Below, one piece after another: positions 12,814 to 57,904 of a stretch of DNA of 64,000 nt (position 1 is the stretch's first letter; every line of letters begins with the position of its first letter). This DNA comes from Roseomonas sp. OT10 (GTDB lineage: Bacteria; Pseudomonadota; Alphaproteobacteria; Acetobacterales; Acetobacteraceae). The position numbers were made by a program, and so were the translations under genes. The notes under the pieces were generated by a model, which searched no databases, was not told the DNA's origin, and saw nothing but the letters and a program-made list of their open reading frames with translations. Location: contig NZ_CP087719.1 in NCBI RefSeq assembly GCF_020991085.1, forward strand, positions 372,001-436,000, in the 5' to 3' direction.

Positions 12814-13170
12814 GTGGCCCGGGGGCAAGGCGCTGCCTCGCCCCCGTACCCCCACTCCGCCAGGACCCTGCGGGCCCTGGACCCATTTGGCGCTGCCGCG
12901 CGGTGGTGGTGACGGGGTCACGGCGCCGAGGAGCTTGGCTCCTCGGCGGGTACGGCCGCAGCCCTCGCTGACGCCTGTGAGACTTTTTCAGAGTCCCGCC
13001 TGTCCGCGCGCCGTCAGGGTTCAGCCCGGAGGCTGACACCCACCGGAAGCACCAGACTCCTAGCGGGGACCGGGGCCCGCTTGTGGCCCCGGCAGGGGAG
13101 GGTCTGGGAGGGGACGGCGTCCCCTCCCGGTCCGACGATGGAACACCACGGCGCGACAGGTCAGCTCATC
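12814..13170 (+). repeat. Mosaic hairpin repeat, copy A (convergent gap)
   Basis: One of five long near-copies in the window. It begins GTGGCCCGGGGGCAAGG and runs through a fixed series of hairpins. These include a GGGGGC/GCCCCC stem, a CCAGG/CCTGG stem, CCGAGGAGC-ttg-GCTCCTCGG at 12926-12946, a CCGGGGCC/GGCCCCGG stem, and finally a GGAGGGGAC/GTCCCCTCC stem. It ends in a weakly conserved gaacac-acag tail. No open frame is shared between copies, so it is not an insertion sequence. It separates the LexA-box gene (plus) from the ABC exporter (minus). Confidence 0.85.
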
Positions 13171-13210
13171 CCGCCATCGGTTTGAGGGCGAAGGGGGAGG
13201 GCGGGCCGTC

Positions 13211-15013
13211 CTACCTCCCCAGGCCCTGGGCCAGGTCCAGCGCCTGCCGCTCGAACAGCCGGCGGTAGAGGCCGCCCTCGCGGCGCACCAGCGCCTCGTG
13301 CCGCCCTTCCTCCACCACGTGCCCGGCGTCGAAGACCAGGATGCGGTCCAGGGCGCGGACGGTGGAAAGCCGGTGCGCGATGACCAGCGTGGTACGCCCG
13401 ACCATCAGCCGCCCCATCGCCTCCTGGATCGCGGCTTCCGATTCCGAATCCAGGCTGGCCGTCGCCTCGTCCAGGATCAGGATCGGCGCGTCGGCCAGGA
13501 AGGCACGCGCCAGGGCCACGCGCTGGCGCTCGCCGCCCGAGAGCTTCACCCCCCGCTCGCCGACGAGCGTGCCGTAGCCCTCCGGCAGGCGGGTGATGAA
13601 GCCGTGCGCATTGGCCAGCCGCGCGGCGGCCTCGATCTCCCGCAGCGGCGCGCCGGGCCGGGCATAGGCGATGTTCTCCGCCAGGCTGCGGTGGAACAGC
13701 ACCGGCTCCTGCTGGACGATCGCCACCTGCCGGCGAAGCGATTCCTGCGTCACGCCCGCGATGTCCTGGCCGTCGATCAGGATGCGGCCCTCCGTCACGT
13801 CGTGCAGCCGCTGGATCAGCTTCACGAAGGTGGTCTTGCCGGAGCCGGAGTGGCCGACCAGCCCCACGCGCTCGCCCGCCGCGATGGTCAGCGACAGGTC
13901 GCGGTAGAGCGGCGTCGCATGCCCGCCGTAGCGGAAGCCGACCTGCCGGAACTCGATGCGGCCGTCCTCGATCGCGATCGGCACGGCCCCGGGCCGGTCC
14001 GGCACGCCGAGCGGCTGCGCATGCAGCGCCACCATCTCCTCCATGTCGTTCACCGCGCGGCGCAGGTTGTTGATGTGGTAGCCCACGTCGCGCAGGTAGC
14101 CCTGCACCACGAAGAACATGGTCAGCACGGTGGCCAGGTCTCCCAGCCCCGCCTGCCCGTGCCACCACAGCCACAGCGCCGTGCCGATCACCGCCACGCG
14201 CAGCAGCACCAGCGCCGCCGTTTGCGCCGTGCCGCTGAGCGTGGCGCGCCACCAGGTGATGTTGGTCGCGAAGCGCCAGACGCGCAGGATGCGCGACAGC
14301 CGCGCCTCCTCGCGTTCCTCCGCGCCGAAGGCCTTCACCACCGCGTTGGCGCCGACCGCATCCGACAGCGCGCCGCCCAGCCGCGTGTCCCAGGCGTTGG
14401 AGCGCTGCGCCGCCGGCGACACCCAGCGCAGCGACAGCCAGGCCGTCGCCGCGACATAGCCGGCGGAGCCCAGCGCCACGACCAGCCCCATCACCGGCCA
14501 GCGCCAGCCCAGCAGCAGCGTCGCGCCGAGCAGCATGGTCAGCGAGGGCAGCAGCGCCACCAGCACCGTGTCGTGCAGCAGGTCCAGCGCGTACATGCCG
14601 CGCGTGACCTGCCGCACGGTGGAGCCGGCGAAGGAGGAGGCGTGCCAGTCGGCCGAGAGCCGCTGCACCCGGTGGAAGGCACCCTCCGCCGCCTCGGTCA
14701 TGGCGCGCAGCGTCATGCGCACGATGGTGAGGAAGGCGAGGTGGCGCAGCACCAGCCCCGCCACGCCGAGCCCGGTCAGCATGGCGAGGGCCTGCAGCGC
14801 CGTGGCCAGCGCGGCGTCGCGGTCGGGGTTGGCGGCGGCCTCCACCAGCCGCCCGGCATAGAGCGGCACCAGCACGTCGGTGCCGGTGGAGGCGATCATG
14901 GCGGCGGCGATGGCGAGCACCAGCCCGCGCTGCCGCCCCCAGCCGCGCAGGACGAAGGCCAGCACGGCCCGGAAGGGATTCGCCGCACGCGCGGCGTTCC
15001 TGGAATCGGTCAC
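13211..15013 (-). CDS. ABC exporter, fused membrane and ATPase domains
   Basis: A half-transporter of about 600 residues: an ABC_membrane domain with six segments, then an ATPase with Walker A (GHSGSGKTT), Q-loop (AIVQQEPVLF), signature LSGGERQRVALARAF and Walker B (ILILDEATASLD). It would act as a homodimer in the inner membrane, exporting a lipid, drug or peptide. Substrate is unknown. The GTG start (MTDSRNAARAANPF) is chosen; a TTG further out (15055) extends it by 14 residues. Neither has a clear ribosome-binding site. It points toward mosaic repeat A. Confidence 0.88.
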   Translation of the reverse strand: MTDSRNAARAANPFRAVLAFVLRGWGRQRGLVLAIAAAMIASTGTDVLVPLYAGRLVEAAANPDRDAALATALQALAMLTGLGVAGLVLRHLAFLTIVRMTLRAMTEAAEGAFHRVQRLSADWHASSFAGSTVRQVTRGMYALDLLHDTVLVALLPSLTMLLGATLLLGWRWPVMGLVVALGSAGYVAATAWLSLRWVSPAAQRSNAWDTRLGGALSDAVGANAVVKAFGAEEREEARLSRILRVWRFATNITWWRATLSGTAQTAALVLLRVAVIGTALWLWWHGQAGLGDLATVLTMFFVVQGYLRDVGYHINNLRRAVNDMEEMVALHAQPLGVPDRPGAVPIAIEDGRIEFRQVGFRYGGHATPLYRDLSLTIAAGERVGLVGHSGSGKTTFVKLIQRLHDVTEGRILIDGQDIAGVTQESLRRQVAIVQQEPVLFHRSLAENIAYARPGAPLREIEAAARLANAHGFITRLPEGYGTLVGERGVKLSGGERQRVALARAFLADAPILILDEATASLDSESEAAIQEAMGRLMVGRTTLVIAHRLSTVRALDRILVFDAGHVVEEGRHEALVRREGGLYRRLFERQALDLAQGLGR

Positions 15014-15149
15014 GAAGACGACCCGGCCGCACGGGAGGCGGCCGATCCCTGACAAGGGGGAAGGGTGGCGATGCCGCAGGGCGGCACGCCGACGGTTCAG
15101 GGCTGGTCCGGGATGGCGGTCCGCGCGGCTGGCGCGCGGATCGACGGAC

Positions 15150-15215
15150 CTAGCGGAGCGCCATGCGGCGCTTGCCCATCGCGAGGAGGAAGGCGATGCG
15201 TGGATGCTTCATCAT
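15150..15215 (-). CDS. Candidate 21-residue small protein or leader peptide
   Basis: The sequence MMKHPRIAFLLAMGKRRMALR starts 5 bases after a perfect GGAGG (15221-15225 on this strand) and ends at TAG. It is basic with a short hydrophobic patch, suited to contact with membrane or RNA. It sits alone between tyrS and the ABC exporter. A possible promoter lies upstream (TTGCAT, 18 bases, TAGACG). The strong Shine-Dalgarno is the main evidence. A leader peptide or chance ORF is possible. Confidence 0.45.
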   Translation of the reverse strand: MMKHPRIAFLLAMGKRRMALR

Positions 15216-15353
15216 GCAGCCCTCCTGGCGCGAGCGTTGGAACCGAGACTCCCGTCTAGCGAAGCCGCAACGGGGAATGCAAGCCCTTCCTGCGGGCGGG
15301 ACGGGCCGCCGGGGAAGTTCGAGGCAGGGCGCCCCGGATCCCCGGCCTTCCCG

Positions 15354-16583
15354 TCATCCCACCCGCACCAGCGCGTGCTTCTTCCGCCCCGCCGAAAGCT
15401 TCGCCGCGCCGTCGCGCAGGTCGGCCGCCTCCACCTGGCGGGTCTCGTCCTCGACCACCGCGTCGTTCAGGCGGATGCCGCCCTGGCGCACCAGGCGGCG
15501 GGCCTCGCCCTTGCTGGCGGCGAAGCCGGCGGCGACCAGCAGGTCCAGCAGCCCGGCCGGCAGGCTGGCCGCGACGGTGGGCAGGTCCTCGGCGGCCTGG
15601 CCGGCCTCGAAGGTGGCCTGGGCGGTGCGGGCGGCGGCCTCGGCGGCCTCGCGCCCGTGGAGCAGGGCGGTGGCCTCGGTGGCGAGCACCTTCTTGGCCT
15701 CGTTCACCTCGGCGCCCTGGAGGGCGGCGAGGCGGGCGATCTCCGCCATCGGCAGCTCGGTGAACAGCTTGAGGAAGCGGCCGACATCGGCATCCTCGGC
15801 GTTGCGCCAGAACTGCCAGTAGTCATAGGCGGAGAGCCGGTCCGGGTTCAGCCAGACGGCGCCGGAGGCCGTCTTGCCCATCTTGGCGCCGGAGGCGGTG
15901 GTGAGCAGCGGCGTGGTCAGGCCGAAGACCTGGGCGGGGGTGCCGGCCTCGGCGGCGACCCGGCGCACCAGCTCCACCCCCATGATGATGTTGCCCCACT
16001 GGTCGGAGCCGCCCATCTGCAGGGCGACGCCCGCGCGCCGGTTCAGCTCCAGGAAGTCGTAGGACTGGAGCAGCATGTAGTTGAACTCGAGGAAGCTCAG
16101 TGGCTGCTCGCGCTCCAGCCGCAGCTTCACGCTGTCCATGGTCAGCATGCGGTTGACGCTGAAATGCCGCCCCACGTCGCGCAGGAAGGGGATGTAGGCC
16201 AGCCGGTCCAGCCATTCCGCATTGTCCAGCATCAGCGCGCCGGCGTCGAAGTCGAGGAAGGCGTCGAAGGTGCGGCGGATGCCCGCCTTGTTGTGCGCGA
16301 TCTGCGCGTCCGTCAGCAGCGGCCGGGCGTCGTCGCGGAAGGAAGGGTCGCCGATCCGCGTGGTGCCGCCGCCCAGCAGCGCCACGGACACATGGCCGCA
16401 GCGTTGCAGCAGGCGAAGCAGCATGATCGAGAGCAGGTGGCCGACATGCAGGCTGTCCGCCGTGCAGTCGAAGCCGACATAGGCCGGCAGCTTCCCCTGG
16501 CGCAGGCGGGCGGCGAGGGCGTCCTCGTCCGTTACCTGGTGGATGAAGCCCCGCTCGCGGGCGATGTGCAGGAAGTCGTGCAT
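15354..16583 (-). CDS. tyrS: Tyrosyl-tRNA synthetase
   Basis: A 409-residue class I aminoacyl-tRNA synthetase attaching tyrosine to tRNA-Tyr. Features: the tyrosine-pocket start [16 protein letters not shown] with the HIGH-like [15 protein letters not shown], the KMSKS-type loop read as KMGKT, and a C-terminal S4 RNA-binding domain ([19 protein letters not shown]). Length fits the bacterial TyrRS group. The ATG start is in the usual place for the family ([16 protein letters not shown]). It lies downstream of an alpha/beta hydrolase gene but is separated from it by an intrinsic terminator, so it probably has its own promoter. Confidence 0.97.
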
Positions 16584-16700
16584 GGCGCCGGCGTCTTGCC
16601 AGACCGGCGCGGCTTCGCCCAGGGGTCACGGCGATGCGGGATGGCGGGCCGGCAGGGACGGGTGGCCGGCGTCGCCGGGGCCAGGGAAAGCCGGGCGAAG

Positions 16701-16734
16701 AAAAAAGGGCGGCGGCCTTCCGGCGCGCCGCCCT
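16701..16734 (-). terminator. Intrinsic terminator of the alpha/beta hydrolase gene
   Basis: Read on the minus strand, AGGGCGGC and its complement GCCGCCCT form a GC-rich stem, directly followed by TTTTTT. It lies about 25 bases past the hydrolase stop, the textbook layout of a Rho-independent terminator. Confidence 0.8.
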
Positions 16735-16759
16735 CCGAGGGTCGGGACAGGCCCGTGGA

Positions 16760-17428
16760 TCAGTCGGCGGCCATGGACATGCGGGCGCGGTTCAGCACCG
16801 TCATCACATGGTCCTGGGTGGCGTCGGCCACCTTCTCCACCTGCTCCGGGGTATAGACGTGGCCCGCGCCTTCCATGACGCGGTAGTCGATCTTCACGCC
16901 CTTCTGGGTGTTCAGCTTGTCCACCAGCTTCCGGACGGAGGGCTCCGGCACCAGCTCGTCATCGGCGCCGTGCAGGATCAGGCCGGAGCAGGGGCAGGGC
17001 GCCAGGAAGCCGAAATCGTAGTGGCTGGCCGGCGCCGAGATGGAGACGAAGCCGCCCATCTCCGGCCGCCGCATCAGCACCTGCATGCCGACATAGGCGC
17101 CGAAGGAGTAGCCCGCGACCCAGAGCATGGAGGCGCCGGGATTCACCGCCTGGAGGAAATCGAGCGCCGCCGTCGCGTCCGAGATCTCGCCGATGCCGCC
17201 GTCATAGCGCCCCTGGCTCTTGCCCACGCCGCGGAAGTTGAAGCGCAGGGTCGAGAAGCCCATGGCCTGGAAGCGGCCGTAGAGCGAATGGACCACCCGG
17301 TTGTTCATGGTCCCGCCATGCAGCGGGTGGGGGTGGAGGATCAGGGCGACGGGGGCATTGGCAGTCTTGGCGTGGTGGTAGCGTCCCTCCAGCCGGCCGT
17401 CGGGACCGGCGAACATCACTTCGGGCAT
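16760..17428 (-). CDS. Alpha/beta hydrolase (dienelactone-hydrolase-like, small)
   Basis: A 222-residue cytoplasmic serine hydrolase. The nucleophile elbow is GYSFGAYVG and the oxyanion region LILHPHPLHGGTMNNRVV, with RFNFRGVGKSQG after it. The acid is near HGADDELVPE and the His in GAGHVYTPEQVEKV. This matches the widespread, poorly characterised 'alpha/beta hydrolase, COG2945' type. The ATG giving MPEVMFAGPDGRLEG is chosen over an upstream extension of 27 residues because it matches family length and has AAGGGG before it. It ends at an intrinsic terminator, so it is a single-gene unit. Confidence 0.9.
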   Translation of the reverse strand: MPEVMFAGPDGRLEGRYHHAKTANAPVALILHPHPLHGGTMNNRVVHSLYGRFQAMGFSTLRFNFRGVGKSQGRYDGGIGEISDATAALDFLQAVNPGASMLWVAGYSFGAYVGMQVLMRRPEMGGFVSISAPASHYDFGFLAPCPCSGLILHGADDELVPEPSVRKLVDKLNTQKGVKIDYRVMEGAGHVYTPEQVEKVADATQDHVMTVLNRARMSMAAD

Positions 17429-17847
17429 CGTCCCCTTACATCCGCTTCCTTGGAGGCGCGCGAACAAGTTCGCCGCACACCTCGAGCCAAAGCCCTGCCA
17501 CGGCGCCACCCACCGGACGGGCAGGTCACGCCGCTACTTGTCGTCTTCACGGACCCTGATGCCGGGCCATGGACCTGGACGTGGCGCGCAGCCAGCCGCT
17601 GGAGGTATCCATGCCACGGATCGGGTCCGACCATGCCGTGATGCCCCGGGGAAGGGCTTACGAAGCCCGGGGCAAAGCCAATATAGGGCGCGGCAACGGG
17701 TTTTCATAATGGAATCATGGCATGTCGCCCATGTCCGACCATCCGGACGGCGCTCGCCCCGCTCTGTCGCATCCGGCCGCTCCGTTCGCGGAACGGCACG
17801 ACCCGCTTTCGTGCCGCCCCGTTCCGGCCTGAGGGACAGCTGACGCC
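17429..17847 (+). promoter_or_regulatory. Divergent regulatory gap (hydrolase / Rrf2 operon)
   Basis: No gene is visible. The gap holds an inverted repeat GCCCCGGG (17643-17650) with CCCGGGGC (17666-17673), and an alternative inner hairpin GGGCTT-acg-AAGCCC. After these come AT-rich words (AATATAGG, TTTTCATAATGG, about 17680-17712) that could be promoter elements for the downstream iron-sulfur operon. Competing hairpins are directly visible; a regulatory role is inference. Confidence 0.35.
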
Positions 17848-18345
17848 ATGCGCCTCTCCACCCGCGCCCGTTACGCCGTGATGGCGATGGCGGAAATGGC
17901 CTCCCGCCGCCGCGAGGCCGGCATCTGCTGCGCCGATGCCGGTCAGGCGCCGATCACCCTGGCCGAGATCGCCACCGCCCAGATGCTGTCCGTCGCCTAT
18001 CTGGAACAGCTGTTCGGCCGGTTGCGCCGCGCCGGGCTGGTCGCCTCGGCCCGCGGCCCGGGCGGCGGCTATCGCCTGGCCCGCCCGGCGGCCGCCATCC
18101 GCATCAGCGAGATCGTCGAGGCGGTGGAGGAGCCCATCGCGGCCACCCGCTGCGACGCGGGGGGCGCCGGCTGCCTGGGTGGCCAGAAATGCGCCACCCA
18201 TGACCTCTGGGCAGAGCTGGGCGAGCAGATCCGGCTGTTCCTGGCCGGCGTCACCCTGGCCGAGGTGGTGGAGGGGCGCGTCCTGGGCCGCGCTGCCTCC
18301 CCGGCCGGCGCCCCGGCCAGGCTGGCCCGCATGGCGCGGAGCTAG
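17848..18345 (+). CDS. Rrf2/IscR-family Fe-S-sensing regulator
   Basis: A 165-residue winged-helix regulator. The helix-turn-helix covers residues 1-60 (MRLSTRARYAVMAMAEMA; LSVAYLEQLFGRLRRAGLV), followed by the wing ARGPGGGYRLARP. The cluster-binding loop has three Cys and a His (C-x6-C-x5-C-x2-H in RCDAGGAGCLGGQKCATH), as in IscR, with one extra residue between the first two Cys. It heads a run of cysteine desulfurases and ferredoxin and very likely represses it when Fe-S clusters are plentiful. The gap to the next gene is about 20 bases. Confidence 0.92.
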   Translation: MRLSTRARYAVMAMAEMASRRREAGICCADAGQAPITLAEIATAQMLSVAYLEQLFGRLRRAGLVASARGPGGGYRLARPAAAIRISEIVEAVEEPIAATRCDAGGAGCLGGQKCATHDLWAELGEQIRLFLAGVTLAEVVEGRVLGRAASPAGAPARLARMARS

Positions 18346-26567: not shown

Positions 26568-26672
26568 ACCCAGGGGCGGCATCCCGGACGTGGGGCGGCC
26601 GCGCCCTCCCTTCCGAGGCCCGCATCGCGGTCACGATCGCCCCGCGCGGATGATGCGGACGGCGGGGTGCCC

Positions 26673-27031: not shown

Positions 27032-27084
27032 TGTCGTGGTCATGAGAGGTGACGGGGAGGCGGCGAAGCCTTCTCCCCGGGGGC

Positions 27085-33749: not shown

Positions 33750-34082
33750 CGTCGCGCCCGGCCCCCGGGGGAGGCGCCGCCTCCCCCGATACCCCCTCCG
33801 CCGGGGCCACAAGCTGGCCCCGGACCCCGCTGGGCGTTGGCTCGGGCGGACGCGGCCTGCCTCCGGGCTGATCCCGGCGGGAGCGCGGACAGGCGGGGCG
33901 CCAATCAGCGTCTTCGAGAGCAGCGAGCGTGGCGACGTGGCCCGCCGAGGAGCATGGCTCCTCGGCGCGACCCCGACGCAGCGCGCGGATGAACGGAAGG
34001 TCCAGGAAACTCAGTTTCCTGGCGGATAGGGGGTATCGGGGGAAAGGCAGGGCCTTTCCCCCGGGGAACGAGAACCGACGCA
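33750..34082 (-). repeat. Divergent mosaic hairpin repeat F
   Basis: This shares the module order of the canonical repeats read in reverse: GGGGAGGCGCCGCCTCCCC hairpin, GGCCACAAGCTGGCC, a 'gcggacaggcgggg' block, the CCGAGGAGC-atg-GCTCCTCGG hairpin, and a final ggcagggcctttcccccg block. Identity to copies A-E is only moderate. It fills the 350 bases between the permease and binding-protein genes, which run in the same direction, and may give the latter its own transcription signals. Confidence 0.6.
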
Positions 34083-36433: not shown

Positions 36434-36687
36434 CCGGCCCGCATCCCGCCAAGCGTCCGCGAGACTCCCGGTGCCCGCGAACAGGGACCGGAATACGGCC
36501 GCACGGATGCTGGAACGGTAGGTCGGTTCGCGCGCAGGACTGGCGTCGAGCCGTGCGCCCGGCAGGGTCATGCCGACCCGCGCGGGACGCTTGTCCCCTC
36601 CGTGAGCCGTCGAAGGTGCCGGTTGGGCGCCACCAGTCCCCGGGAACCGCTCGAAGGTCAGATGGAGCCCACCGTCCCGGATCATGC
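36434..36687. other. Non-coding stretch before mosaic repeat C
   Basis: I see no convincing gene. A short minus-strand frame here has some protein-like character (RSSIRAAVFRSLFAGTG) but no start signal or family match. Confidence 0.35.
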
Positions 36688-37075
36688 GCGCGGCGTGATG
36701 CGTTGACGTCTGCCGGCGTTGCACCCGCGGCCCGGGGGCAAGGCTCTGCCTCGCCCCCGTACCCCCACTCCGCCAGGACCCTGCGGGCCCTGGACCCGAT
36801 CGGCGCTGCCGCGGGACAGCCTGCAACGGGGTCACAGCGCCGAGGAGCGTGGCTCCTCGGCGGGTACGGCCACCGCACTCGCTGACGCCTTTGAAGCTTT
36901 TTCGGAGTCCCGCCTGTCCGCGCTCCGTCAGGGTTCAGCCCGCGGGCTGACGCCCACCGGAAGCACCAGACTCCCAGCGGGGACCGGGGCCCGCTTGTGG
37001 CCCCGGCAGGGGAGGGTCCGTGGAGGGGACGGCGTCCCCTCCCGGTCCGCCGTCGGGCCACCGGGCGCGACAGCC
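36688..37075 (+). repeat. Mosaic hairpin repeat, copy C (convergent gap)
   Basis: This is the longest copy. It adds a leading block cgcggcgtgatgcgttgacg shared with copy D. Then come the GGGGGC/GCCCCC stem, CCAGG/CCTGG stem, CCGAGGAGC-gtg-GCTCCTCGG, a perfect CAGCCCGCGGGCTG palindrome, the CCGGGGCC/GGCCCCGG stem and the GGAGGGGAC/GTCCCCTCC stem. It lies between the DUF4286-like gene (plus) and cysE (minus). Confidence 0.85.
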
Positions 37076-37086
37076 CGCCGCCCGGA

Positions 37087-37926
37087 TCAGATCGAGAATT
37101 CGGGCCGCGGCAGGCTCTGGTCCATGGTGAGGGCGGGCAGGGAGTTGTGGCGGCCGACCCGCTTCGCCGGCACGCCGACCACGGTGGTATAGGGCGGCAC
37201 GTCCTCCAGCACGATGGAGCCGGCGCCGACCTTGGCACCCGTTGCCACCTCGATGTTGCCCAGGATCTTGGCGCCGGCGCCGATCAGCACGCCGCGGCGG
37301 ATCTTGGGGTGGCGGTCGCCGCATTCCTTGCCCGTGCCGCCCAGCGTGACGCCCTGGAGGATGGAGACGTCGTCCTCCACCACCGCCGTCTCGCCGATCA
37401 CGATGCCCGTGCTATGGTCCAGCATGATCCCGCGCCCGAGCCGGGCCGCCGGGTGGATGTCCACGCCGAAACATTCCGAGACCCGCGAGTGCAGGTGGCG
37501 CGCCAGATGCATCCGGCCCTGGTGCCACAACCAGTGGGACACGCGGTAGGCCTGCAGCGCCTGGTAGCCCTTGAAGTAGAGGAAGGGGGTCAGCAGGTCC
37601 GGGCAGGCGGGGTCGCGGTCCTCCACCGCGCGCAGGTCGGCGGCGGCGGCGGCGACGATCTCCGGCTCCTGCACGAAGGCCTCGCAGATCACCCCGGCCA
37701 GGACCCCGGCCTCCACGTCGCCATCCCCCAGCTTGCGGGCGATGCGGTAGCCCAGCGCCGGGGCGAAGCCGCCATGCCCCAGCACCGCGCGGTGCAGCGG
37801 CTGCGCCAGCAGCGCGTCGCGGCCGATCGCCTCCTTCGCCTCCCGGCGCAGCCGGGCCCAGAGTCCGGCCGCGGGGGAGGATTCGTCCAGTTCGCCGGGA
37901 AGCAGGGCAAGGCAGGGTGACGGCAT
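37087..37926 (-). CDS. cysE: Serine O-acetyltransferase
   Basis: A 279-residue enzyme acetylating serine with acetyl-CoA, the first step of cysteine synthesis. The N-terminal helical domain (LWARLRREAKEAIGRD) precedes a left-handed hexapeptide beta-helix with the catalytic His in MLDHSTGIVIGETAVV and the DVSILQGVTLGGTGK loop. The C-terminal tail usually binds cysteine synthase through a terminal Ile, and here the chain ends FSI. The ATG giving MPSPCLALLPGELDE fits family length. It supplies cysteine, the sulfur donor used by the desulfurases elsewhere in the window. Confidence 0.95.
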   Translation of the reverse strand: MPSPCLALLPGELDESSPAAGLWARLRREAKEAIGRDALLAQPLHRAVLGHGGFAPALGYRIARKLGDGDVEAGVLAGVICEAFVQEPEIVAAAAADLRAVEDRDPACPDLLTPFLYFKGYQALQAYRVSHWLWHQGRMHLARHLHSRVSECFGVDIHPAARLGRGIMLDHSTGIVIGETAVVEDDVSILQGVTLGGTGKECGDRHPKIRRGVLIGAGAKILGNIEVATGAKVGAGSIVLEDVPPYTTVVGVPAKRVGRHNSLPALTMDQSLPRPEFSI

Positions 37927-40499: not shown

Positions 40500-40760
40500 T
40501 CCCGGGCGGGCGTGGCGCGCGTGGCCCGCAGGGGCGGGCTCCGCCCCCCCTGCACCCCCCCGCCAGGAGCAAAGCCCCTGGACCCCCTTTCACAAATGCG
40601 CTGTCCCGAAGGGGAGCTCCCCGACGCGGCTCCGCCGTCGGGGAGCTCCCCTTCGGGACAGCACCGCTCTTCTACGAATAGGGGTCCAGGGGCTTTGCTC
40701 CTGGCGGATGGGGGATACGGGGGGAAGGCAGGGCCTTTCCCCCCGGGCCACAGGCGCACC
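40500..40760. repeat. Nested palindromic repeat G between cbiD and cobB
   Basis: The gap is almost entirely self-complementary. Perfect 24-base outer arms lie at 40563-40586 and 40681-40704. Perfect 27-base inner arms lie at 40600-40626 and 40636-40662 with a 9-base loop. Still further out, imperfect arms begin and end with GTGGCCCG...CGGGCCAC. The outer arms (ccaggagcaaagcccctgg) resemble the CCAGG...CCTGG module of copies A-E, so it looks like a relative. Any promoter of cobB or cbiD must lie in or beside it. Confidence 0.8.
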
Positions 40761-43093: not shown

Positions 43094-43881
43094 CGCCGCG
43101 CCCCGGTCCCTCCGGTGGTCTCTTGGGCGGCCTCGCGCGGGACCTCGGCGGGGCGCTGGCGCTGCTGACCCGGCTGCCCGCCCATCGCCTGCTGCCGATG
43201 CCCGCGGAGGCGGCCGGCTTCGCGCGCGGCGTCTGGGCCTATCCGCTGGTGGGGGCGCTGGCCGGCGCGATCGGCGGCGGGGTCTGGTGGGCGGGCCGGT
43301 CGCTGGGCCTGCCGCCGCTGCCCGCCGCCTGCTGGGCGCTGGCGGCGCTGCTGCTGGCCACCGGCGCCTTCCACGAGGACGGGCTGGCGGACACGGCGGA
43401 CGGCTTCGGCGGCGGCCGCACCCGCGAGCGCAAGCTGGAGATCATGCGCGACAGCCGCATCGGCAGCTACGGCGCCCTGGCGCTGGCGCTCTGCCTGGCG
43501 CTGCGCGGCACGGCCCTGGCCACGCTCTCCGGCCCGGCGGGATGCGCGGCGCTGGTGGCGTCCGGCGCGCTGGGGCGAGGGGCCATCCTGGGGCTGCTGC
43601 GGCTGCTGCCCCCGGCCCGCGCCGACGGGATGGCCGCTGCGCTGGGGCGGCCGGGCGGGGCGGTTCTGGCGGCGGGGCTGGGGCTGGCAGCGCTGCCGGC
43701 CGCGTTGCTGCTGCCCTGGTCCGCCGTGGCGGGGGCGGTGCTGGCGGCGCCGGCAGCCACGCTGGCACTGGCCGCGCTGGCGCGGCGGCAGATCGGCGGG
43801 CATACGGGGGATGTGCTGGGCGCGGGCTCGGTCGTCGCGGAATGCACCGTGCTGAGTCTGCTGGCGGCGCTGGCCGCCTGA
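43090..43881 (+). CDS. cobS: Adenosylcobinamide-GDP ribazoletransferase
   Basis: A 263-residue inner-membrane enzyme joining adenosylcobinamide-GDP and alpha-ribazole, the last assembly step of cobalamin. Motifs: LLTRLPAHR near the start, FHEDGLADTADGFGGG with the metal-binding acidic residues, and RKLEIMRDSRIGSYG. Several hydrophobic segments follow. The GTG start overlaps the cobT stop. The cobinamide kinase (CobU/CobP) is not in this cluster. Confidence 0.95.
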   Translation: MTPRPGPSGGLLGGLARDLGGALALLTRLPAHRLLPMPAEAAGFARGVWAYPLVGALAGAIGGGVWWAGRSLGLPPLPAACWALAALLLATGAFHEDGLADTADGFGGGRTRERKLEIMRDSRIGSYGALALALCLALRGTALATLSGPAGCAALVASGALGRGAILGLLRLLPPARADGMAAALGRPGGAVLAAGLGLAALPAALLLPWSAVAGAVLAAPAATLALAALARRQIGGHTGDVLGAGSVVAECTVLSLLAALAA

Positions 43882-43894
43882 TCCGGGCGGCGGG

Positions 43895-44297
43895 ATGGAA
43901 CTGACCCGTGGTGCTGTGGTGTTCGGGCGTCGGACCGGGAGGGGACGGCGTCCCCTCCCAGACCCTCCCCTGCCGGGGCCACAAGCGGGCCCCGGTCCCC
44001 GCTGAGAGTTGGCTCTACGCGGCTGCCGTCAGCCTGCGGGCTGAACCCTGACGGAGCGCGGACAGGCGGGACTCTAGAATAGCTTCAGAAGGCGTCAGCG
44101 AGGGTAGAGGCCGTACCCGCCGAGGAGCATGGCTCCTCGGCGCTGTGACCCCGTTGCAGGCTGTCCCGCGGCAGCGCCTCTCGGGTCCAGGGCCCGCAGG
44201 GTCCTGGCGGAGTGGGGGTACGGGGGCGAGGCAGCGCCTTGCCCCCGGGCCACGGGCGCCCGTCCGGCAGACGTCAGCGCATCACGCCGCGCGGATG
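43895..44297 (-). repeat. Mosaic hairpin repeat, copy D (convergent gap, reversed)
   Basis: The only one of the five canonical copies in the reverse orientation. On the plus strand it reads GGAGGGGACGGCGTCCCCTCC, then GGCCACAAGCGGGCC, CCGAGGAGC-atg-GCTCCTCGG, ccgcagggtcctggcgg, and ends at GGGCCAC near 44253. The extra block shared with copy C (ccggcagacgtcagcgc) follows. It lies between cobS (plus) and the MarR gene (minus). Confidence 0.85.
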
Positions 44298-50009: not shown

Positions 50010-50299
50010 GAAGCAGGGCGCCCGGTCCCCGGGGGAGGCGTCGCCTCCCCCGCTACCCCATCCGCCGGGGGCGGGCCGGCACCAGGATCCCGGCGGGGTT
50101 CCGCCATCCGGGGGCCGCGTCGCGGAGAGCCCGGATGGCGGGATATCCGGGCCGCGCGGGCCGTGGCCGCCGTCGCCGGGGAGCCAGGCTCCCCGGCGTG
50201 CGACGCCTCTGTGAATGGGGGTCCAGGGACCTCGCTCCCGGCGGATGGGGGGGGCGGGGGGCAAGGCGGAGCCTTCCCCCCGGGGGCCGGCGCCGCGCC
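50010..50299. repeat. Divergent mosaic hairpin repeat H inside the hydrogenase-4-like operon
   Basis: A hairpin chain: GGGGGAGGC-gtc-GCCTCCCCC, then CCGGGGAGCCAGGCTCCCCGG (perfect stem), a 'gggggtccagggacctcgctcc' block like the outer arm of repeat G, and a final ggggcaaggcggagccttcccc hairpin. It lies between the HyfB-like and HyfC-like genes. No gene is visible in it. Confidence 0.65.
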
Positions 50300-52336: not shown

Positions 52337-52410
52337 GCCTGGACGATAGCAGCCGGGGGCGGGACGGCCAGGGTACAACCGGGATCGCCGCCGGGGACGA
52401 AACGCGCGAT

Positions 52411-52447: not shown

Positions 52448-52501
52448 AAGGGTGCCGGGAAGGGGCAGCCAAGCCCCCCACGCAGGAGACGTTCAGCTTC
52501 C

Positions 52502-53626
52502 ATGGACCGCCGCAGCTTCCTCGCGGGTGCCAGCGCCGCCGCCCCGGCAGCCCTGGCCACGAGCCTTGCCGCCCCCGCCCTGGCGCAGTCCGCGCCGGAG
52601 ATCCGCTGGCGCTGTGCCAGCTCCTTCCCCAAGTCGCTGGACACCATCTACGGCGCCGGCGAGCACGTGGCCAAGCGCGTCGCGGCCCTGACCGACGGCA
52701 AGTTCCGCATCACCATGTTCGCCGCGGGCGAGGTGGTGCCGGGCCTGGCGGTCGCCGACGCCGTGCAGAACGGCACCGTGGACTGCGCCCACACCGCCTC
52801 CTACTACTTCGTCGGCAAGGACCCGACCTTCGCGCTCGACGGTACCATCCCCTTCGGGATGAACTTCCGCCAGATCAACGCCTGGCTGAACGGGGCCGGC
52901 GGGCGCGAGGTGCTGCGCGAGTTCTACGACAGCTTCAACATCGTCTCGATCCCCGCGGGCAACACCGGTGCCCAGATGGGCGGCTGGTTCCGCAAGGAGA
53001 TCAAGAGCGTCGCCGACCTGAACGGGCTGAAGTTCCGCATCGGCGGCTTCGCCGGCAACGTGCTGCAGAAGCTGGGCGTGGTGGCGCAGCAGATCGCGGG
53101 CGGCGACATCTACCCGGCGCTGGAGCGCGGCACGATCGACGCCGCCGAGTGGATCGGCCCCTATGACGACGAGAAGCTGGGCTTCAACCGCGTCGCGCCC
53201 TTCTACTACTACCCGGGCTTCTGGGAGGGCGGGCTGAACCTGTCCGTCTACGTCGCCAAGGCGAAGTACGACGAGCTGCCGCCGCTCTACAAGGAGGCGC
53301 TGGAGAGCGCCTGCCGCGATGCCACCATCGAGACCATCGCCAAGTACGACGTGCAGAACCCGCAGGCACTGCGCCGCCTCGTCGCCTCCGGCACCCAGCT
53401 CCGTCCCTTCCCGCGCGAGGTGATGCAGGCGGCCTACAAGGCGGCCTTCGAGCTGTACGACGAGACGGCGGCGTCCAACCCGCGCTTCAAGAAGGTCTAC
53501 GACCACTTCAAGGCCTTCCGCGACACGGAGCTGCAGTGGTTCCGCGTGGCGGAGAACACCTACGACAACTTCGTCTACTCCATGCAGGCGCTCGAGCAGC
53601 AGCAGGCTGCCCAGCCGCGCCGTTAA
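52502..53626 (+). CDS. TRAP transporter substrate-binding protein (DctP family)
   Basis: A 374-residue periplasmic protein with a Tat-style leader (MDRRSFLAGASAAAPAALAT...). The DctP fold shows RCASSFPKSLDTIYGAGE, the ligand-binding Arg region DLNGLKFRIGGFAGNVLQ, and IYPALERGTIDAAEWIGPYDD. The pattern is of the mannitol/2-oxoacid/chloroaromatic sub-group with helix-swapped dimers. Ligand is not determinable. The small and large membrane subunits follow in order. Confidence 0.94.
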   Translation: MDRRSFLAGASAAAPAALATSLAAPALAQSAPEIRWRCASSFPKSLDTIYGAGEHVAKRVAALTDGKFRITMFAAGEVVPGLAVADAVQNGTVDCAHTASYYFVGKDPTFALDGTIPFGMNFRQINAWLNGAGGREVLREFYDSFNIVSIPAGNTGAQMGGWFRKEIKSVADLNGLKFRIGGFAGNVLQKLGVVAQQIAGGDIYPALERGTIDAAEWIGPYDDEKLGFNRVAPFYYYPGFWEGGLNLSVYVAKAKYDELPPLYKEALESACRDATIETIAKYDVQNPQALRRLVASGTQLRPFPREVMQAAYKAAFELYDETAASNPRFKKVYDHFKAFRDTELQWFRVAENTYDNFVYSMQALEQQQAAQPRR

Positions 53627-53635
53627 GGGCCACCC

Positions 53636-54184
53636 ATGAGACCACTGCTCGCCTTCAGCCGCGTCGTGGACGACGTGAACACCGTCTTCGGCAAGATCGC
53701 CGAGTGGATGGTGCTGGCCGCCTGCGTCATCAGCGCCGGCAACGCCGTCATCCGCTATGCCCTGTCCATGTCGTCCAACGGCTGGCTGGAGGTGCAGTGG
53801 TACCTCTTCGCGGGCGTGGTCATGCTGGGTGCCGCCTATACCCTGAACCGCAACGGCCACGTCCGCGTCGACCTGATCTACGGCAACCTGTCGGAGCGCG
53901 GGCGGCTGTGGGTGGACGTGCTGGGGATCATCTTCTTCCTGTTCCCCGCCATGCTGCTGCTGGTGTGGATGACCTGGCCCTTCTTCCTCGACTCCTGGAC
54001 CCGCTCGGAAGGCAGCCAGAATGCCGGTGGCCTGATCCGCTGGCCGGTCAAGCTGCTGCTGCCGCTGGGCTACCTGCTGATCACGCTCCAGGGCGCCTCC
54101 GAGCTCATCAAGCGGATCGCGCTGCTGCGCGGCATCCGCCCCGAGGGCGACGTGATCCTGTCCTACGAGAAGCCGGTGCAGTGA
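53636..54184 (+). CDS. TRAP transporter small permease (DctQ)
   Basis: A 182-residue four-helix membrane protein. The family motif EVQWYLFAGVVMLGAAYTLNRNGHVRVDLIY is complete. It supports the large permease. It starts 9 bases after the binding-protein gene. Confidence 0.93.
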   Translation: MRPLLAFSRVVDDVNTVFGKIAEWMVLAACVISAGNAVIRYALSMSSNGWLEVQWYLFAGVVMLGAAYTLNRNGHVRVDLIYGNLSERGRLWVDVLGIIFFLFPAMLLLVWMTWPFFLDSWTRSEGSQNAGGLIRWPVKLLLPLGYLLITLQGASELIKRIALLRGIRPEGDVILSYEKPVQ

Positions 54185-54227
54185 GCGCCGGCCACACCGC
54201 ACGCCCCCTTACGGACGCCGAGGCGCG

Positions 54228-55640
54228 ATGAATCCCGACTACATGCCCCCGCTGATGTTCAGCGGGCTGGTGATCTTCCTGCTCGTGGGCTTTCCCGTCG
54301 CCTTCAGCCTGGCGGCGGTGGGTCTGTTCTTCGGCTTCCTGTCGATCGAGCTGGGCTTCTTCACCACCGCCTTCCTGGCCAACCTGCCGCTGCGCGTCTT
54401 CGGCGTGCTGTCGAACGAGCTGCTGCTGGCCATTCCCTTCTTCACCCTGATGGGCGCCATCCTGGAACGCTGCGGGCTGGCGGAGGACCTGCTGGAGGGC
54501 ATGGGCCAGCTCTTCGGCAAGATGCCCGGCGGCCTCGCCATCGCCGTCGTGCTGGTGGGCGCGGTGCTGGGCGCCATCACCGGCACCGTCGCCGCCTCGG
54601 TGATCGCGATGGGCATGATCTCCCTGCCGATCATGCTGCGCTACGGCTACGACCAGCGCATCGCCACCGGCGTCATCGCCGCCTCGGGCACCATCGCGCA
54701 GCTGATCCCGCCCAGCCTCGTGCTGATCATCCTGGGTGACCAGCTCGGCCGCTCGGTCGGCGACATGTATGCCGGCGCCATCGGCCCCTCCATCCTCCAG
54801 GTCAGCGTCTTCATCCTGTTCATCCTGGGCGTCGCGCTCTTCGCCCCGCACCGCGTGCCGCCGCTGCCGGAGGAGGCGCGGATGGACCGAGGCTGGCGCC
54901 TGTACTGGAAGGTGCTGCGCGGCATCGTGCCGTCCGCCGCGCTGATGTTCCTCGTGCTCGGCACCATCTTCCTCGGCCTCGCGACCCCCACCGAGGCGGG
55001 CGCGATGGGCGCGGTGGGTGCCATCTTCCTGGCCATCCTCAACCGCCGCTTCAGCTACCCGCTGCTGCGCGAGGCGCTGGCCAACACCGCGCGCATCACC
55101 GCGATGGTGGTCTTCCTGCTGCTGGGCGCCACCGTCTTCTCGCTGGTCTTCCAGGGCGTGGACGGGGGATTGTGGATCGAGCACCTGCTGTCCCACCTGC
55201 CCGGCGGCCAGACGGGCTTCCTGATCTTCGTCAACGTCTTCGTCTTCTTCCTGGCCTTCTTCCTCGACTTCTTCGAGATCGCCTTCATCGTCGTGCCGCT
55301 GCTGGCGCCGGTGGCGGCGAAGCTGGACATCAACCTGGTCTGGTTCGGCGTGCTGCTCTGCGTGAACCTGCAGACCAGCTTCATGCACCCGCCCTTCGGC
55401 TTTGCCCTGTTCTACCTGCGCTCCGTGGCGCCGCCCGAGGTCCGCACCAGCCAGATCTACTACGGGGCCATCCCCTGGGTCTGCCTGCAGCTCATCATCG
55501 TGGCCATCGTGATCTTCTGGCCGGAGAGCGTGACCTACTGGATCGACCACGGGCCCACGATGGACCCGGCCAGCGTGCGTATCGACGTGCCCATGCCGGA
55601 TATGGGGTTCGACGAAGCTCCGCCGATCGAGTTCAAGTAG
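54228..55640 (+). CDS. TRAP transporter large permease (DctM)
   Basis: A 470-residue membrane protein with about 12-14 helices carrying the Na+-driven transport site. Landmarks: FSGLVIFLLVGFPVAFSLA, IPFFTLMGAILERCGLAEDL, GTVAASVIAMGMISLPIML, and LQTSFMHPPFGFALFYLR near the C-terminus. It completes the tripartite set and ends before a hairpin terminator. Confidence 0.94.
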   Translation: MNPDYMPPLMFSGLVIFLLVGFPVAFSLAAVGLFFGFLSIELGFFTTAFLANLPLRVFGVLSNELLLAIPFFTLMGAILERCGLAEDLLEGMGQLFGKMPGGLAIAVVLVGAVLGAITGTVAASVIAMGMISLPIMLRYGYDQRIATGVIAASGTIAQLIPPSLVLIILGDQLGRSVGDMYAGAIGPSILQVSVFILFILGVALFAPHRVPPLPEEARMDRGWRLYWKVLRGIVPSAALMFLVLGTIFLGLATPTEAGAMGAVGAIFLAILNRRFSYPLLREALANTARITAMVVFLLLGATVFSLVFQGVDGGLWIEHLLSHLPGGQTGFLIFVNVFVFFLAFFLDFFEIAFIVVPLLAPVAAKLDINLVWFGVLLCVNLQTSFMHPPFGFALFYLRSVAPPEVRTSQIYYGAIPWVCLQLIIVAIVIFWPESVTYWIDHGPTMDPASVRIDVPMPDMGFDEAPPIEFK

Positions 55641-55647
55641 CCGGGAC

Positions 55648-55677
55648 GCGGCCGGGAGGGGGGACCTGCCCGGCCGC
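55648..55677 (+). terminator. Probable terminator of the TRAP operon
   Basis: GCGGCCGGG and CCCGGCCGC form a perfect 9-bp stem with a 12-base loop, seven bases after the dctM stop. The tail (ttcgctctt) is only partly T-rich, so the call is moderate. Confidence 0.55.
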
Positions 55678-55710
55678 TTCGCTCTTCGGCGCAGGGCTCC
55701 TGGCCCCGAA

Positions 55711-55737
55711 TTACTTGCGAACGGTTCTTACTTGCGA
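55711..55737 (+). promoter_or_regulatory. Tandem 10-bp direct repeat upstream of a small gene
   Basis: TTACTTGCGA occurs twice, 17 bases apart start to start, separated by ACGGTTC. It lies 36 bases before the next ATG in an AT-richer stretch, a good position for an operator. The TTGCGAA...TTC words recall iron-regulator (Fur-type) sites of alphaproteobacteria, but that is a guess. Confidence 0.45.
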
Positions 55738-55772
55738 CAAGCTGGGTCCCCACGCCTCTGGAGGAGCCTTGC

Positions 55773-56237
55773 ATGGCCGCCCACGGACTGCCCGCCTGGC
55801 CCTGGACCGGTGCCGCCCCGGAGGAGCTGCCGCCGCCGGAAGCCCTGCTGCTCGACGCCCTGCGCGGCTGGGCCCGGGCTCGGCGGCTGGGCCACCCCGC
55901 CGCGCATGCCATCGCCCTGCCGCTCGCCACCGCCGATCTGGCCGAGGCCGCGCCGGCGCTTGATCAGGCGCTGCGCCTCTGCACCAGCCCCGGGGAACTC
56001 GGCTGCCCGCTCTGCCCCCGGCTGGTCGGCGCGGAGCCGGCCCTGCTCCTGGCCTTCGCCCTGGCCCAGCGCGGCCCGCGCCGGGAGGCGCTGGCCGCCT
56101 TCCTGCGCCTCGTTCCGCCGCCGAGCGCCTATGCCGCCCTGGGACATGCACTGGCGGTCATGATCGCCTTCCGGCGCGCCGGGCTGTGGCTGGAGAATCC
56201 GGTGCGCCGCCCGGCCTCCGCGACCCGCCCGTTCTGA
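55773..56237 (+). CDS. Hypothetical protein with a CxxC motif
   Basis: A 154-residue protein I do not recognise. It is helical, Ala/Leu/Pro-rich, without signal peptide. A short Cys cluster (RLCTSPGELGCPLCPRLVG, about residues 68-85) could hold a metal or redox disulfide. A GGAGG lies before the ATG, and a tandem direct repeat lies upstream, so it looks like a regulated real gene. It stands alone between the TRAP operon and the HtrA gene. Confidence 0.6.
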   Translation: MAAHGLPAWPWTGAAPEELPPPEALLLDALRGWARARRLGHPAAHAIALPLATADLAEAAPALDQALRLCTSPGELGCPLCPRLVGAEPALLLAFALAQRGPRREALAAFLRLVPPPSAYAALGHALAVMIAFRRAGLWLENPVRRPASATRPF

Positions 56238-56394
56238 GGCCCTCCGCGGGCCTGCCCCGGTTGGCGGGCCGCATGTGACGCGACCGTAATTCGTGATGGA
56301 AACAGATTAAGGCCCGGGCGGATCGAACCGTCATCCGCGGCCGCCCATCCTTCCGCAACAGACGCCGCCCCCGCGGCCTGGCCGGAGGATCCCG

Positions 56395-57498
56395 ATGACC
56401 ACCCCTCGCTTGCGCAACACCCTAGCCGCCGCCCTGCTCGCCGCGACCGCCCTCGGCGGCGGAGTCCTGGGAAGCACGCTGGCCGCCCCCAGCCCGGCCT
56501 ATGCCGCTCCGCTCGCCGCGGTCGCGGCCCAGCCCCAGGGCTTCGCGGATCTGGTGGACCGGGTCGCCCCCGCCGTGGTGAAGATCGCCGTGGCCGGAAC
56601 GGCGCCAAGCGAGCAGGCCCAGGCCATCCCGCCGGGCTTTCTGCCGCCGGGCGCCAAGCTGCGTGGCGCCGAGCCGCGTCGCGTGATGGGCGAGGGCTCG
56701 GGCTTCATCATCGACCCCTCGGGCCTCGTGGTGACGAACTTCCATGTCGCCGGCCATGCCGATTCCATCCGCGTCACCCTGGCTGACGGCACCACCCTGC
56801 CCGCCCGCGTGATCGGTAGCGACGAGCGCACCGACCTCGCCCTGCTGCAGGTCGCGACGGACAAGCCGCTGCCCGCCGTGTCTTTCGCCGATGGGGCGGA
56901 GCCGCGCGTGGGCGACTGGGTGCTGGCGGTGGGCAACCCCTTCGGCCTCGGCCCCAGCGTGACGGCGGGCATCATCTCCGCCCGCGGCCGCGATCTGAAC
57001 GCCGGCCCCTATGACAGCTTCCTGCAGACGGATGCCCCCATCAACCCGGGCAATTCCGGCGGGCCGCTGTTCGACACCCAGGGGCGCGTGGTGGGCGTGA
57101 ACACCGCCATCCTCTCCCCCTCCGGCGCCAATGCCGGCATCGGCTTCGCCGTGCCCGCCGATCTGGCCTCCCGCGTCGTCACCGCGCTGAAGGCCGATGG
57201 CCGCGTCGCCCGCGGCTGGCTGGGCGTGGAGACCGCCCCCTTCGCCGAGGGCAAGCGCGAGGGCGCCATGGTCGCGGCCGTGCAGGACAACGGCCCCGCC
57301 GCCAAGGCCGGCCTGCGCCCGGGCGACGTCATCACCGCCGTGGACGGACAGGCGGTGAAGGACCCCCGCGCCCTGGCCCGCCTCGTGGCCGATCAACATC
57401 CGGGTGCGGAGGTCGCCCTGACCATCGCCCGGGGTCCCGCCTCCACCACCCTCCGCGCGACGCTCAAGGACCAGCCGCCCCTGCACGCGCAGAGCTGA
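56395..57498 (+). CDS. HtrA/DegP-like serine protease with PDZ domain
   Basis: A 367-residue S1C protease. A signal peptide ends near AYAAPL. The trypsin-like domain has His in VVTNFHVAGHAD, Asp in DERTDLALLQV and Ser in INPGNSGGPLFD. A single PDZ domain (about residues 270-360; GPAAKAGLRPGDVITAVDG) follows, and the N-terminal VDRVAPAVVKIAV is typical. It acts in periplasmic protein quality control. One PDZ places it with DegS-like or short HtrA forms. The 155-base gap before it has AT-rich words (cgtaattcgtgatggaaac) that may be its promoter. It ends at mosaic repeat E. Confidence 0.93.
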   Translation: MTTPRLRNTLAAALLAATALGGGVLGSTLAAPSPAYAAPLAAVAAQPQGFADLVDRVAPAVVKIAVAGTAPSEQAQAIPPGFLPPGAKLRGAEPRRVMGEGSGFIIDPSGLVVTNFHVAGHADSIRVTLADGTTLPARVIGSDERTDLALLQVATDKPLPAVSFADGAEPRVGDWVLAVGNPFGLGPSVTAGIISARGRDLNAGPYDSFLQTDAPINPGNSGGPLFDTQGRVVGVNTAILSPSGANAGIGFAVPADLASRVVTALKADGRVARGWLGVETAPFAEGKREGAMVAAVQDNGPAAKAGLRPGDVITAVDGQAVKDPRALARLVADQHPGAEVALTIARGPASTTLRATLKDQPPLHAQS

Positions 57499-57540
57499 GG
57501 AAGCGCAGCACAGGGCGCTGATCCCAAGGAGGCAGCGCCC

Positions 57541-57904
57541 GTGGCCCGGGGGCAAGGCTCTGCCTCGCCCCCGTACCCCCACTCCGCCAGGACCCTGCGG
57601 GCCCTGGACCCGAGAGGCGCTGCCGCGGGACAGCCTGCGAGGGGGTCACGGCGCCGAGGAGCATGGCTCCTCGGCGGGTACGGCCGCAGCATTCGCTGAC
57701 GCCTTTGATGTTTCTTTCAGCGTCCCGCCTGTCCGCGCTTTCCCCGGGATCAGCCCGCAGGCTGACGCCTACCGGAAGCACCAGACTCCCAGCGGGGTCC
57801 GGGGCCCGCTTGTGGCCCCGGCAGGGGAGGGTCCGTGGAGGGGACGGCGTCCCCTCCCGGTCCGACGCCGGAACACGACAGCGCCACGGGTCAGGTCATC
57901 CCGC
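57541..57904 (+). repeat. Mosaic hairpin repeat, copy E (convergent gap)
   Basis: A near-copy of A-C. Hairpins can be placed exactly: GGGGGC/GCCCCC at 57548-57572, CCGAGGAGC-atg-GCTCCTCGG at 57654-57674, CCGGGGCC/GGCCCCGG at 57799-57821, and GGAGGGGAC/GTCCCCTCC at 57837-57857. It ends in the gaacacgacag tail. It fills the gap between the HtrA gene (plus) and the DapA-like gene (minus). Confidence 0.87.

What the first reader, a model, noticed from the sequence alone, without database searches (positions are those of the whole stretch)
12814..57904. A family of ~360-bp hairpin-chain repeats marking convergent gene junctions
Five long near-copies (about 12814, 26673, 36688, 43895 and 57541) share one module order: at least six stem-loops in a row, no shared ORF, no transposase. 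Each sits between two genes pointing at each other. By my count the window has eight convergent junctions; all five wider than 40 bp hold a copy, and the other three (about 6744, 24388, 62230) are under 40 bp. This looks selected, for example as two-way transcription terminators, mRNA 3'-end structures, or sites for a nucleoid protein or REP-type transposase. Copy D is flipped, so orientation is not fixed.
Basis: partly seen in the sequence, partly recalled or inferred. Interest (0 to 1): 0.78.

Follow-up and report, generated by a model that had tools for sequence, protein, structure and literature searches.

The report
Mobile hairpin repeats at gene ends
A Roseomonas bacterium carries well over a hundred copies of a 415-base hairpin-rich element that looks like a small mobile DNA which often landed exactly at stop codons, mostly where two genes face each other, and whose two outer hairpin pairs have been kept almost unchanged, so it may have become punctuation marking the ends of genes.

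Summary
The five copies are real (89% mean column identity) and belong to a family of an estimated 170 copies in a 5.69-Mb Roseomonas genome (160 strict matches, 0 in the reversed control). In an evenly spaced sample (15% of the main contig) plus the window, 26 copies could be placed: 20 convergent, 6 co-directional, 0 divergent. The window also holds three shorter relatives in non-convergent gaps. Each copy is a ~415-bp unit with imperfect terminal inverted repeats, flanked by a 3-bp TNA direct repeat, usually TGA (26 of 27 copies with TNA at both ends match). In 37 of 56 copies one repeat is a gene's stop codon at 0 bp. So it is MITE-like, probably spread by an IS5/IS1031-type transposase (inferred; no partner found, no RAYT). 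Two inverted double-hairpin modules differ by about 1% from consensus while ends and core differ by 11-14%, and stems covary between species. This suggests a resident function at gene 3' ends, such as an orientation-free terminator or transcript-end barrier (inferred; no U-tail seen). Copies within one genome are in linkage equilibrium beyond ~15 bp, implying conversion between dispersed copies. Convergent enrichment of such repeats is already published; the conversion signal is the surprising part.

The parts
12768..13182 (+). copy A, whole element (415 bp); TGA direct repeats at 12765-12767 and 13183-13185
12818..12884 (+). copy A, left double-hairpin module (HP1-linker-HP2)
   Evidence: 83.2 bits
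13066..13132 (-). copy A, right double-hairpin module, inverted
   Evidence: 48.6 bits
26654..27042 (+). copy B; TGA direct repeats at 26651-26653 and 27043-27045 (left boundary from script; right boundary placed by eye, the script chose another place)
36685..37086 (+). copy C (402 bp); TCA/TCA direct repeats, the right one at 37087-37089 being the complement of the stop codon of the serine acetyltransferase gene
43882..44295 (-). copy D (414 bp), inverted; TGA/TGA direct repeats, the left one at 43879-43881 being the stop codon of the CobS gene
57499..57912 (+). copy E; left end taken by eye to follow the stop codon 57496-57498 of the trypsin/PDZ protease gene directly (terminal repeat diverged, the script chose another place); right end without a recognisable repeat
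33764..34065 (-). shorter, diverged relative with two inverted modules, in a co-directional gap
40527..40746 (-). short relative (two inverted modules around a long hairpin core) in a divergent gap
50026..50284 (-). short relative, two inverted modules, co-directional gap

Best explanation
The repeats are copies of a non-autonomous DNA transposon (MITE-like, ~415 bp). A transposase with a 3-bp T-N-A target inserted them, and insertions survived mainly at gene 3' ends, often exactly at a stop codon and most often between convergent genes. Shown: terminal inverted repeats, the TNA direct repeat, exact abutment to stop codons in two thirds of the copies examined, 3'-end placement, no shared reading frame. 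Inferred: the kind of transposase (IS5 superfamily, IS1031 type) and that it has been lost or was missed. Resident copies keep two inverted double-hairpin modules almost unchanged while their ends and core drift. I therefore infer that they now serve at gene ends as orientation-free 3'-end structures that stop RNA polymerase or protect the ends of the two converging transcripts. Variants at different sites of the element are combined at random among copies. I infer frequent gene conversion or mosaic formation between dispersed copies, which keeps the family alike within a species.
For: TNA direct repeat: 26 of 27 copies with TNA at both ends are identical, including one TAA case; chance 2e-7 if the middle base were a free two-way choice. 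Stop codon at offset 0 in 37 of 56 copies. A resident IS5-type IS shows 3-bp TNA repeats in the 6 of 12 loci that my script aligned (6 of 6, read by eye), and TNA is the published IS1031 habit (PMC12016507, passage seen). One orthologous gap is 40-44 bp in three relatives against 448-452 bp here. Placement 20 convergent / 6 co-directional / 0 divergent of 26. Modules: divergence from consensus 0.1-3% in HP1, linkers and HP2 against 11-14% in core, spacer and ends, 54 copies; 2341 of 2364 stem cells Watson-Crick. Between species 13 of 42 pairs show double changes, 0 of 500 shuffles reach this, slid controls 2-4. Linkage: r2 0.36 below 5 bp, 0.0212 beyond 30 bp against 0.0208 for shuffled alleles; a star tree with rate variation gives 0.7 or fewer clean two-allele sites on average against 26 observed.
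Against: 21 of 47 copies with both ends placed do not show identical triplets. None of 24 PF13586 transposase loci carries the pair of terminal repeats, one having a weak single hit. R. mucosa-clade relatives and the G101 genus show the same inner architecture at gene 3' ends, and by eye no such repeat (not formally tested), so TNA insertion may be a habit of this lineage only. Given the TNA triplets available in short gaps, stop abutment is only modestly above expectation: 32 of 45 against 27.3 expected, p 0.04. The preference for convergent over free co-directional 3' ends is weak: p 0.066 outside the window, 0.010 with it. For termination: no U-tract terminator in copy E, no G-U over A-C excess on the sense strand (5 against 5), and the distal module of nine co-directional copies is not relaxed (4/536 against 11/521 proximal). 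In the covariation count one of five measures, the number of further pair types, is not above shuffles (26 against 27.4).
Confidence: 0.6

Rival explanations
1. Purely selfish MITE: insertions go to any T-N-A and remain only where harmless; hairpins have no host role and are kept for mobility.
For: Convergent enrichment weakens once free 3' ends are the null: p 0.066 outside the window when only co-directional gaps of 100 bp or more count. Stop abutment is near what TNA availability gives. Published precedent for pneumococcal repeats, where tolerance was offered as the explanation (PMC3049150, passages seen).
Against: If modules were kept only for mobility the terminal repeats should be at least as conserved; they are not. 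Module divergence is about 1% in copies whose cores differ by about 12%.
Confidence: 0.3
2. REP/REPIN-like element: the two inverted modules are the replicating ends, moved by a hairpin-recognising transposase, the core being a spacer.
For: Same plan as published REPINs: inverted conserved ends, less conserved spacer, compensatory changes (PMC3116915, passages seen). An inverted partner module at 14 of 20 top-scoring module loci of three other genera.
Against: No Y1_Tnp (RAYT) match in the genome while the control rings in 5 of 14 genomes. TNA direct repeats lie outside the modules.
Confidence: 0.15
3. Nucleoid or supercoiling sites: paired modules bind a protein such as gyrase or a nucleoid protein and relax supercoils between converging genes.
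For: Module conservation is symmetrical and does not depend on which side is transcribed; no RNA-strand bias in stem substitutions; the unpaired linkers are about as frozen as the stems.
Against: No binding data. Nine of ten co-directional copies lie exactly at the upstream stop codon, as expected for a 3'-end element.
Confidence: 0.2
4. The linkage equilibrium is caused by recurrent mutation, not conversion.
For: 37 of 72 variable sites are transitions, and some sites have third alleles.
Against: 35 of 72 variable sites are transversions, some near 50:50 with few or no third alleles; star simulations fail to give this; linkage is strong below 5 bp and falls with distance, p <= 0.0005 for pairs within 15 bp.
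Confidence: 0.05

Closest known systems
Bacterial MITEs (Correia, RUP, Chunjie, QMITE; review PMC10969869, passages seen)
   Same: Short, no coding capacity, terminal inverted repeats, direct repeat of the target, intergenic, many copies.
   Different: Two inverted double-hairpin modules frozen far below the divergence of the ends; stop codon as one target repeat in two thirds of the copies examined; linkage equilibrium among copies. The review's main text holds none of the terms 'stop codon', 'gene conversion' and 'convergent'.
SPRITE, RUP and BOX of Streptococcus pneumoniae (PMC3049150, passages seen)
   Same: Over-represented between convergent genes; SPRITE close to gene 3' ends and thought co-opted as terminators; BOX sometimes encodes the stop codon.
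   Different: Another phylum (recalled), no likeness tested; SPRITE has a U-rich tract, none was found in the copy of ours that was scanned.
REP / BIME / REPIN (PMC3116915, PMC3733652, passages seen)
   Same: Inverted palindromic units in high copy, mostly between convergent or co-directional genes, compensatory changes.
   Different: No RAYT in this genome; about 415 bp; TNA direct repeats. PMC3733652 names Acetobacteraceae among families without CGTC repeats.
IS5 family, IS1031 group (PMC12016507, passage seen)
   Same: 3-bp TNA target, TGA being an example.
   Different: Our element has no transposase; its terminal repeats differ from those of the resident IS5-type IS.

Membership tests
MITE | terminal inverted repeats | tested here: met
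   Both ends carry T-N-A then TACSGACGGCGGGATG, imperfectly; found at both ends in 47 of 56 copies at the score used
MITE | target-site direct repeat | tested here: met
   26 of 27 copies with TNA at both ends identical; 26 of all 47 identical
MITE | no coding capacity | tested here: met
   No frame open in more than 16 of 54 copies; longest open stretch equals shuffled
MITE | shares terminal repeats with an autonomous IS | tested here: inconclusive
   24 PF13586 loci, none with the repeat pair; other transposase families not searched
REP/REPIN | RAYT (Y1_Tnp) in the genome | tested here: not met
   0 matches to PF01797
REP/REPIN | inverted pair of conserved palindromic ends around a less conserved spacer | tested here: met
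Intrinsic (Rho-independent) terminator | G+C-rich stem followed by a U-run | tested here: not met
   0 found in 57400-58000; only copy E scanned
Rfam family | match at gathering score | tested here: not met
   window scan gave two tRNAs only
IS5/IS1031-mobilised | movement by such a transposase | not testable with these tools
   TNA repeat is consistent with it, no activity data

The most novel reading that the evidence does not exclude
A former transposon has become a genome-wide, orientation-free punctuation mark for gene 3' ends in several Acetobacteraceae. Its roughly 170 copies in this genome behave as one freely recombining population inside a single chromosome: gene conversion shuffles their cores to linkage equilibrium while selection freezes the two double-hairpin modules.
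Probability: 0.3. Interest if true: 0.78.

Novelty: new variant of a known kind. Interest (0 to 1): 0.6.

Why it matters
Whether dispersed bacterial repeats are kept alike by gene conversion is an old question (Higgins et al. 1988, seen only as a title in a reference list). This family has enough copies, and enough variation, to measure conversion rate and tract length directly. It also offers a clean case for asking when a mobile element turns into a host 3'-end signal, since the parts needed for mobility and the parts that are conserved are physically separate.

Tried and rejected
RAYT/IS200-type mobiliser: searched, none. IS5-type partner with the same ends: 24 loci scanned, none with the pair; 6 end-motif hits in the sample lie outside known copies, against 9 in the reversed control. 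A 9-base likeness between the resident IS end (GAGCCTGATCCG) and the inner part of our end (CCTGATCCG) was seen by eye only and not pursued. Synteny around the DUF2126 gene in six relatives: three scattered gene matches only, so no orthologous junctions there. Orthologues of three other junction gene ends in three relatives: no profile hit adjoining any of the nine gene ends, and one at the DUF2126 gene end in G004 only, 1 of 3. The double-hairpin module as a feature of all Acetobacteraceae: rejected, a strict scan of 80 loci gave 5 against 10 in the reversed control; the covariance model finds it in 17 of 80 genomes, this one included. Link to replication origin: GC skew of the sample is small and patternless, and dnaA lies at 3.68, 2.66 and 3.61 Mb, not at a common place relative to the copies. 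My first junction table allowed too little overlap between convergent genes and mis-typed one copy (L189:12266); corrected. In one search a labelling slip pooled convergent and co-directional copies under 'CO'; the pooled figure is what I report. The scan profile was built from the same ends that it describes; the direct-repeat test did not use the three repeat bases, but its end motif was chosen after looking at the flanks.
Full report
What is there. The five copies align over 391 columns at 89% mean column identity, copy D being inverted. The window lies at C1:372001-436000 of a 5,689,429-bp genome in three contigs. Its genus is that of Roseomonas mucosa: relative G004 has a contig of 286,498 bases, the length of the R. 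mucosa ATCC BAA-692 contig; the species of the window itself is not identified. A search with copy E gave 362 first-look candidates, of which 40 were scored, and all 40 matched over most of the query at 88-100%. A 38-base core segment with up to 3 mismatches has 160 matches, 79 and 81 by strand, and 0 in the reversed control.

Placement, tested on an evenly spaced sample. I took 40 stretches of 20 kb plus the window, 864 kb in all, and found 45 profile hits, 31 of them above 200 bits; 26 in 800 kb outside the window scales to about 170 on contig 1. Five of the 31 lie at stretch ends and could not be placed. Of the other 26, 20 are convergent, 6 co-directional and 0 divergent, against 93, 544 and 97 junctions. 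Without the window it is 15, 6 and 0 of 21: p 7e-10 by junction count, 1.3e-8 by intergenic length, 1.2e-5 if every stop codon is an equal target, but only 0.066 (0.010 with the window) if co-directional gaps below 100 bp are left out. So 3'-end placement is firm, and the further preference for convergent over free co-directional 3' ends is weak. The weaker hits (13) are 6 convergent and 7 co-directional. Gene calls are from my own Markov caller; Pfam was run on window neighbours only.

It is a mobile element. An end motif sits at both termini (TACSGACGGCGGGATG reading inward), preceded by T-N-A. I examined 56 distinct copies: the sample plus the 30 best matches to copy E, so this set leans towards E-like copies. 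47 have both ends placed; in 26 of these the two flanking triplets are the same on one strand (16 TGA, 9 TCA, 1 TTA), in 21 they are not. Of the 27 with TNA on both sides, 26 agree (chance 2e-7). In 37 of 56 copies a gene's stop codon ends exactly at the boundary: 25 of 40 convergent, 9 of 10 co-directional, 3 of 6 unplaced. The TTA case carries a TAA stop, so the triplet comes from the target, not from the element. The 26 matched copies have a median length of 416 bp, range 402-443. An IS5-type IS of this genome, in 12 loci of equal score, leaves TNA repeats in the 6 of 6 copies that my script aligned (repeats read by eye). Stop abutment is 32 of 45 against 27.3 expected from TNA availability (p 0.04, convergent and co-directional pooled), so a general TNA target plus loss of harmful insertions explains most of it. 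One orthologous gap, co-directional (squalene-hopene cyclase and a hopanoid gene; names recalled, not searched), is 40-44 bp between aligned blocks in three relatives and 448-452 bp here. The exact insertion point cannot be read there because the gap has diverged, and since the relatives may form one clade, gain here against loss there is not polarised.

Anatomy. Left and right parts carry the same two-hairpin module (HP1, a CCCCC..TCCGCC linker, HP2) facing each other. With a covariance model of this module, a partner facing it was found at 14 of 20 top-scoring loci of three other genera. Of these 20, the 8 of G101 are all convergent, the 6 of G088 all co-directional, and of the 6 of G092 one is convergent; the loci were picked by score. 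The module occurs in 17 of 80 Acetobacteraceae genomes searched, this one included. R. mucosa-clade copies (first-look candidates 282, 248 and 216; 40 scored in each) are 15 convergent, 9 co-directional and 0 divergent of 24 placed; these stretches were partly picked for hits.

Constraint. In 54 copies of this genome divergence from consensus is 0.1% in HP2, 0.5% in HP2', 1.9-2.3% in the outer hairpins, 1.2-3.0% in the linkers and 5.1% in HP3, but 11-14% in spacer, core and outer parts. Of 2364 stem cells 2341 are Watson-Crick; G-U (10) and A-C (8) are about equally rare, also on the strand of the abutting gene, 5 and 5. Between species 97.3% of cells pair and 13 of 42 pairs have double changes (shuffled mean 8.1, 0 of 500 reach it; slid controls 2-4); the number of further pair types is not above shuffles. 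Selection on resident copies is the simplest reading, since the terminal repeats, which mobility would need, are not the conserved part. Against a plain terminator: no U-tail in the copy scanned, and in nine co-directional copies the distal module is not relaxed (4 of 536 against 11 of 521; few changes, low power).

Linkage equilibrium. Among the 54 copies (mean pairwise identity 87.5%) 72 sites have a common second allele, 35 of them transversions. r2 is 0.36 below 5 bp, 0.09 at 5-15 bp and about 0.02 beyond; for pairs over 30 bp apart it is 0.0212 against 0.0208 for shuffled alleles. Of 44 sites with a second allele in 12 or more copies, 26 have at most 2 further letters; star-tree simulations with three rate spreads give 0.7 or fewer such sites on average. 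Forty R. mucosa-clade copies from three species show a similar decay (0.115, 0.046, then 0.031-0.033; shuffled 0.027), ending slightly above shuffled. This is what frequent conversion between dispersed copies would leave.

What is known. TNA is the published target of the IS1031 group (PMC12016507, passage). Convergent enrichment of mobile repeats, explained by tolerance and in one case by co-option as terminators, is published for pneumococcus (PMC3049150, passages), and placement between convergent and co-directional genes for REPs (PMC3733652, passages). REPINs share the inverted plan (PMC3116915, passages). In the listings (open-access library only; most matching papers not listed) I saw no description of this Roseomonas family and no linkage test among bacterial dispersed repeats; that is not proof of absence.

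Verdict. A new MITE/REPIN-like family with a clear insertion signature, possible co-option at gene 3' ends, and an unexpected conversion signal. Placement, direct repeats, module constraint and linkage decay are shown; the transposase, the molecular function and conversion as the cause are inferred.

Noticed in passing
G000 C1; G003 C1; G012 C1: Copies crowd into part of each chromosome: of the 100 places I counted from the list (160 matches in all), 33 lie in 0-1 Mb, 14 in 1-3 Mb and 53 beyond 3 Mb of 5.33 Mb; none of the 40 full-length hits counted for G003 lies between 0.92 and 3.11 Mb, and 1 of 40 for G012 between 1.9 and 3.99 Mb.
   Followed up: partly
33764-34065, 40527-40746, 50026-50284; L163, L179, L185, L187, L191, L192, L196: Shorter relatives with two inverted modules fill most of the co-directional gap between two genes, often ending 12-21 bp from each coding sequence, which leaves little room for a promoter outside the element.
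   Followed up: no
40527-40746: The core of this short element is a long near-perfect hairpin, between divergent CbiD and CbiA/GATase_3-type genes.
   Followed up: no
L285-L296: A 971-bp IS5-type insertion sequence in 12 loci of equal score, 9 of them on contig C2, with 3-bp TNA direct repeats in the 6 copies aligned.
   Followed up: partly
window 1-64000 against G003, G004, G012, G006, G008, G013: Gene order around the DUF2126 gene is almost wholly different in all six same-genus genomes looked at although that protein is 72-85% identical, so operon-scale shuffling seems extensive.
   Followed up: no
L248-L255: In another genus (G101) the equivalent elements have a long palindromic core and sit 5-26 bp from the left stop codon and 6-38 bp from the right one in 8 of 8 top-scoring loci looked at.
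   Followed up: partly
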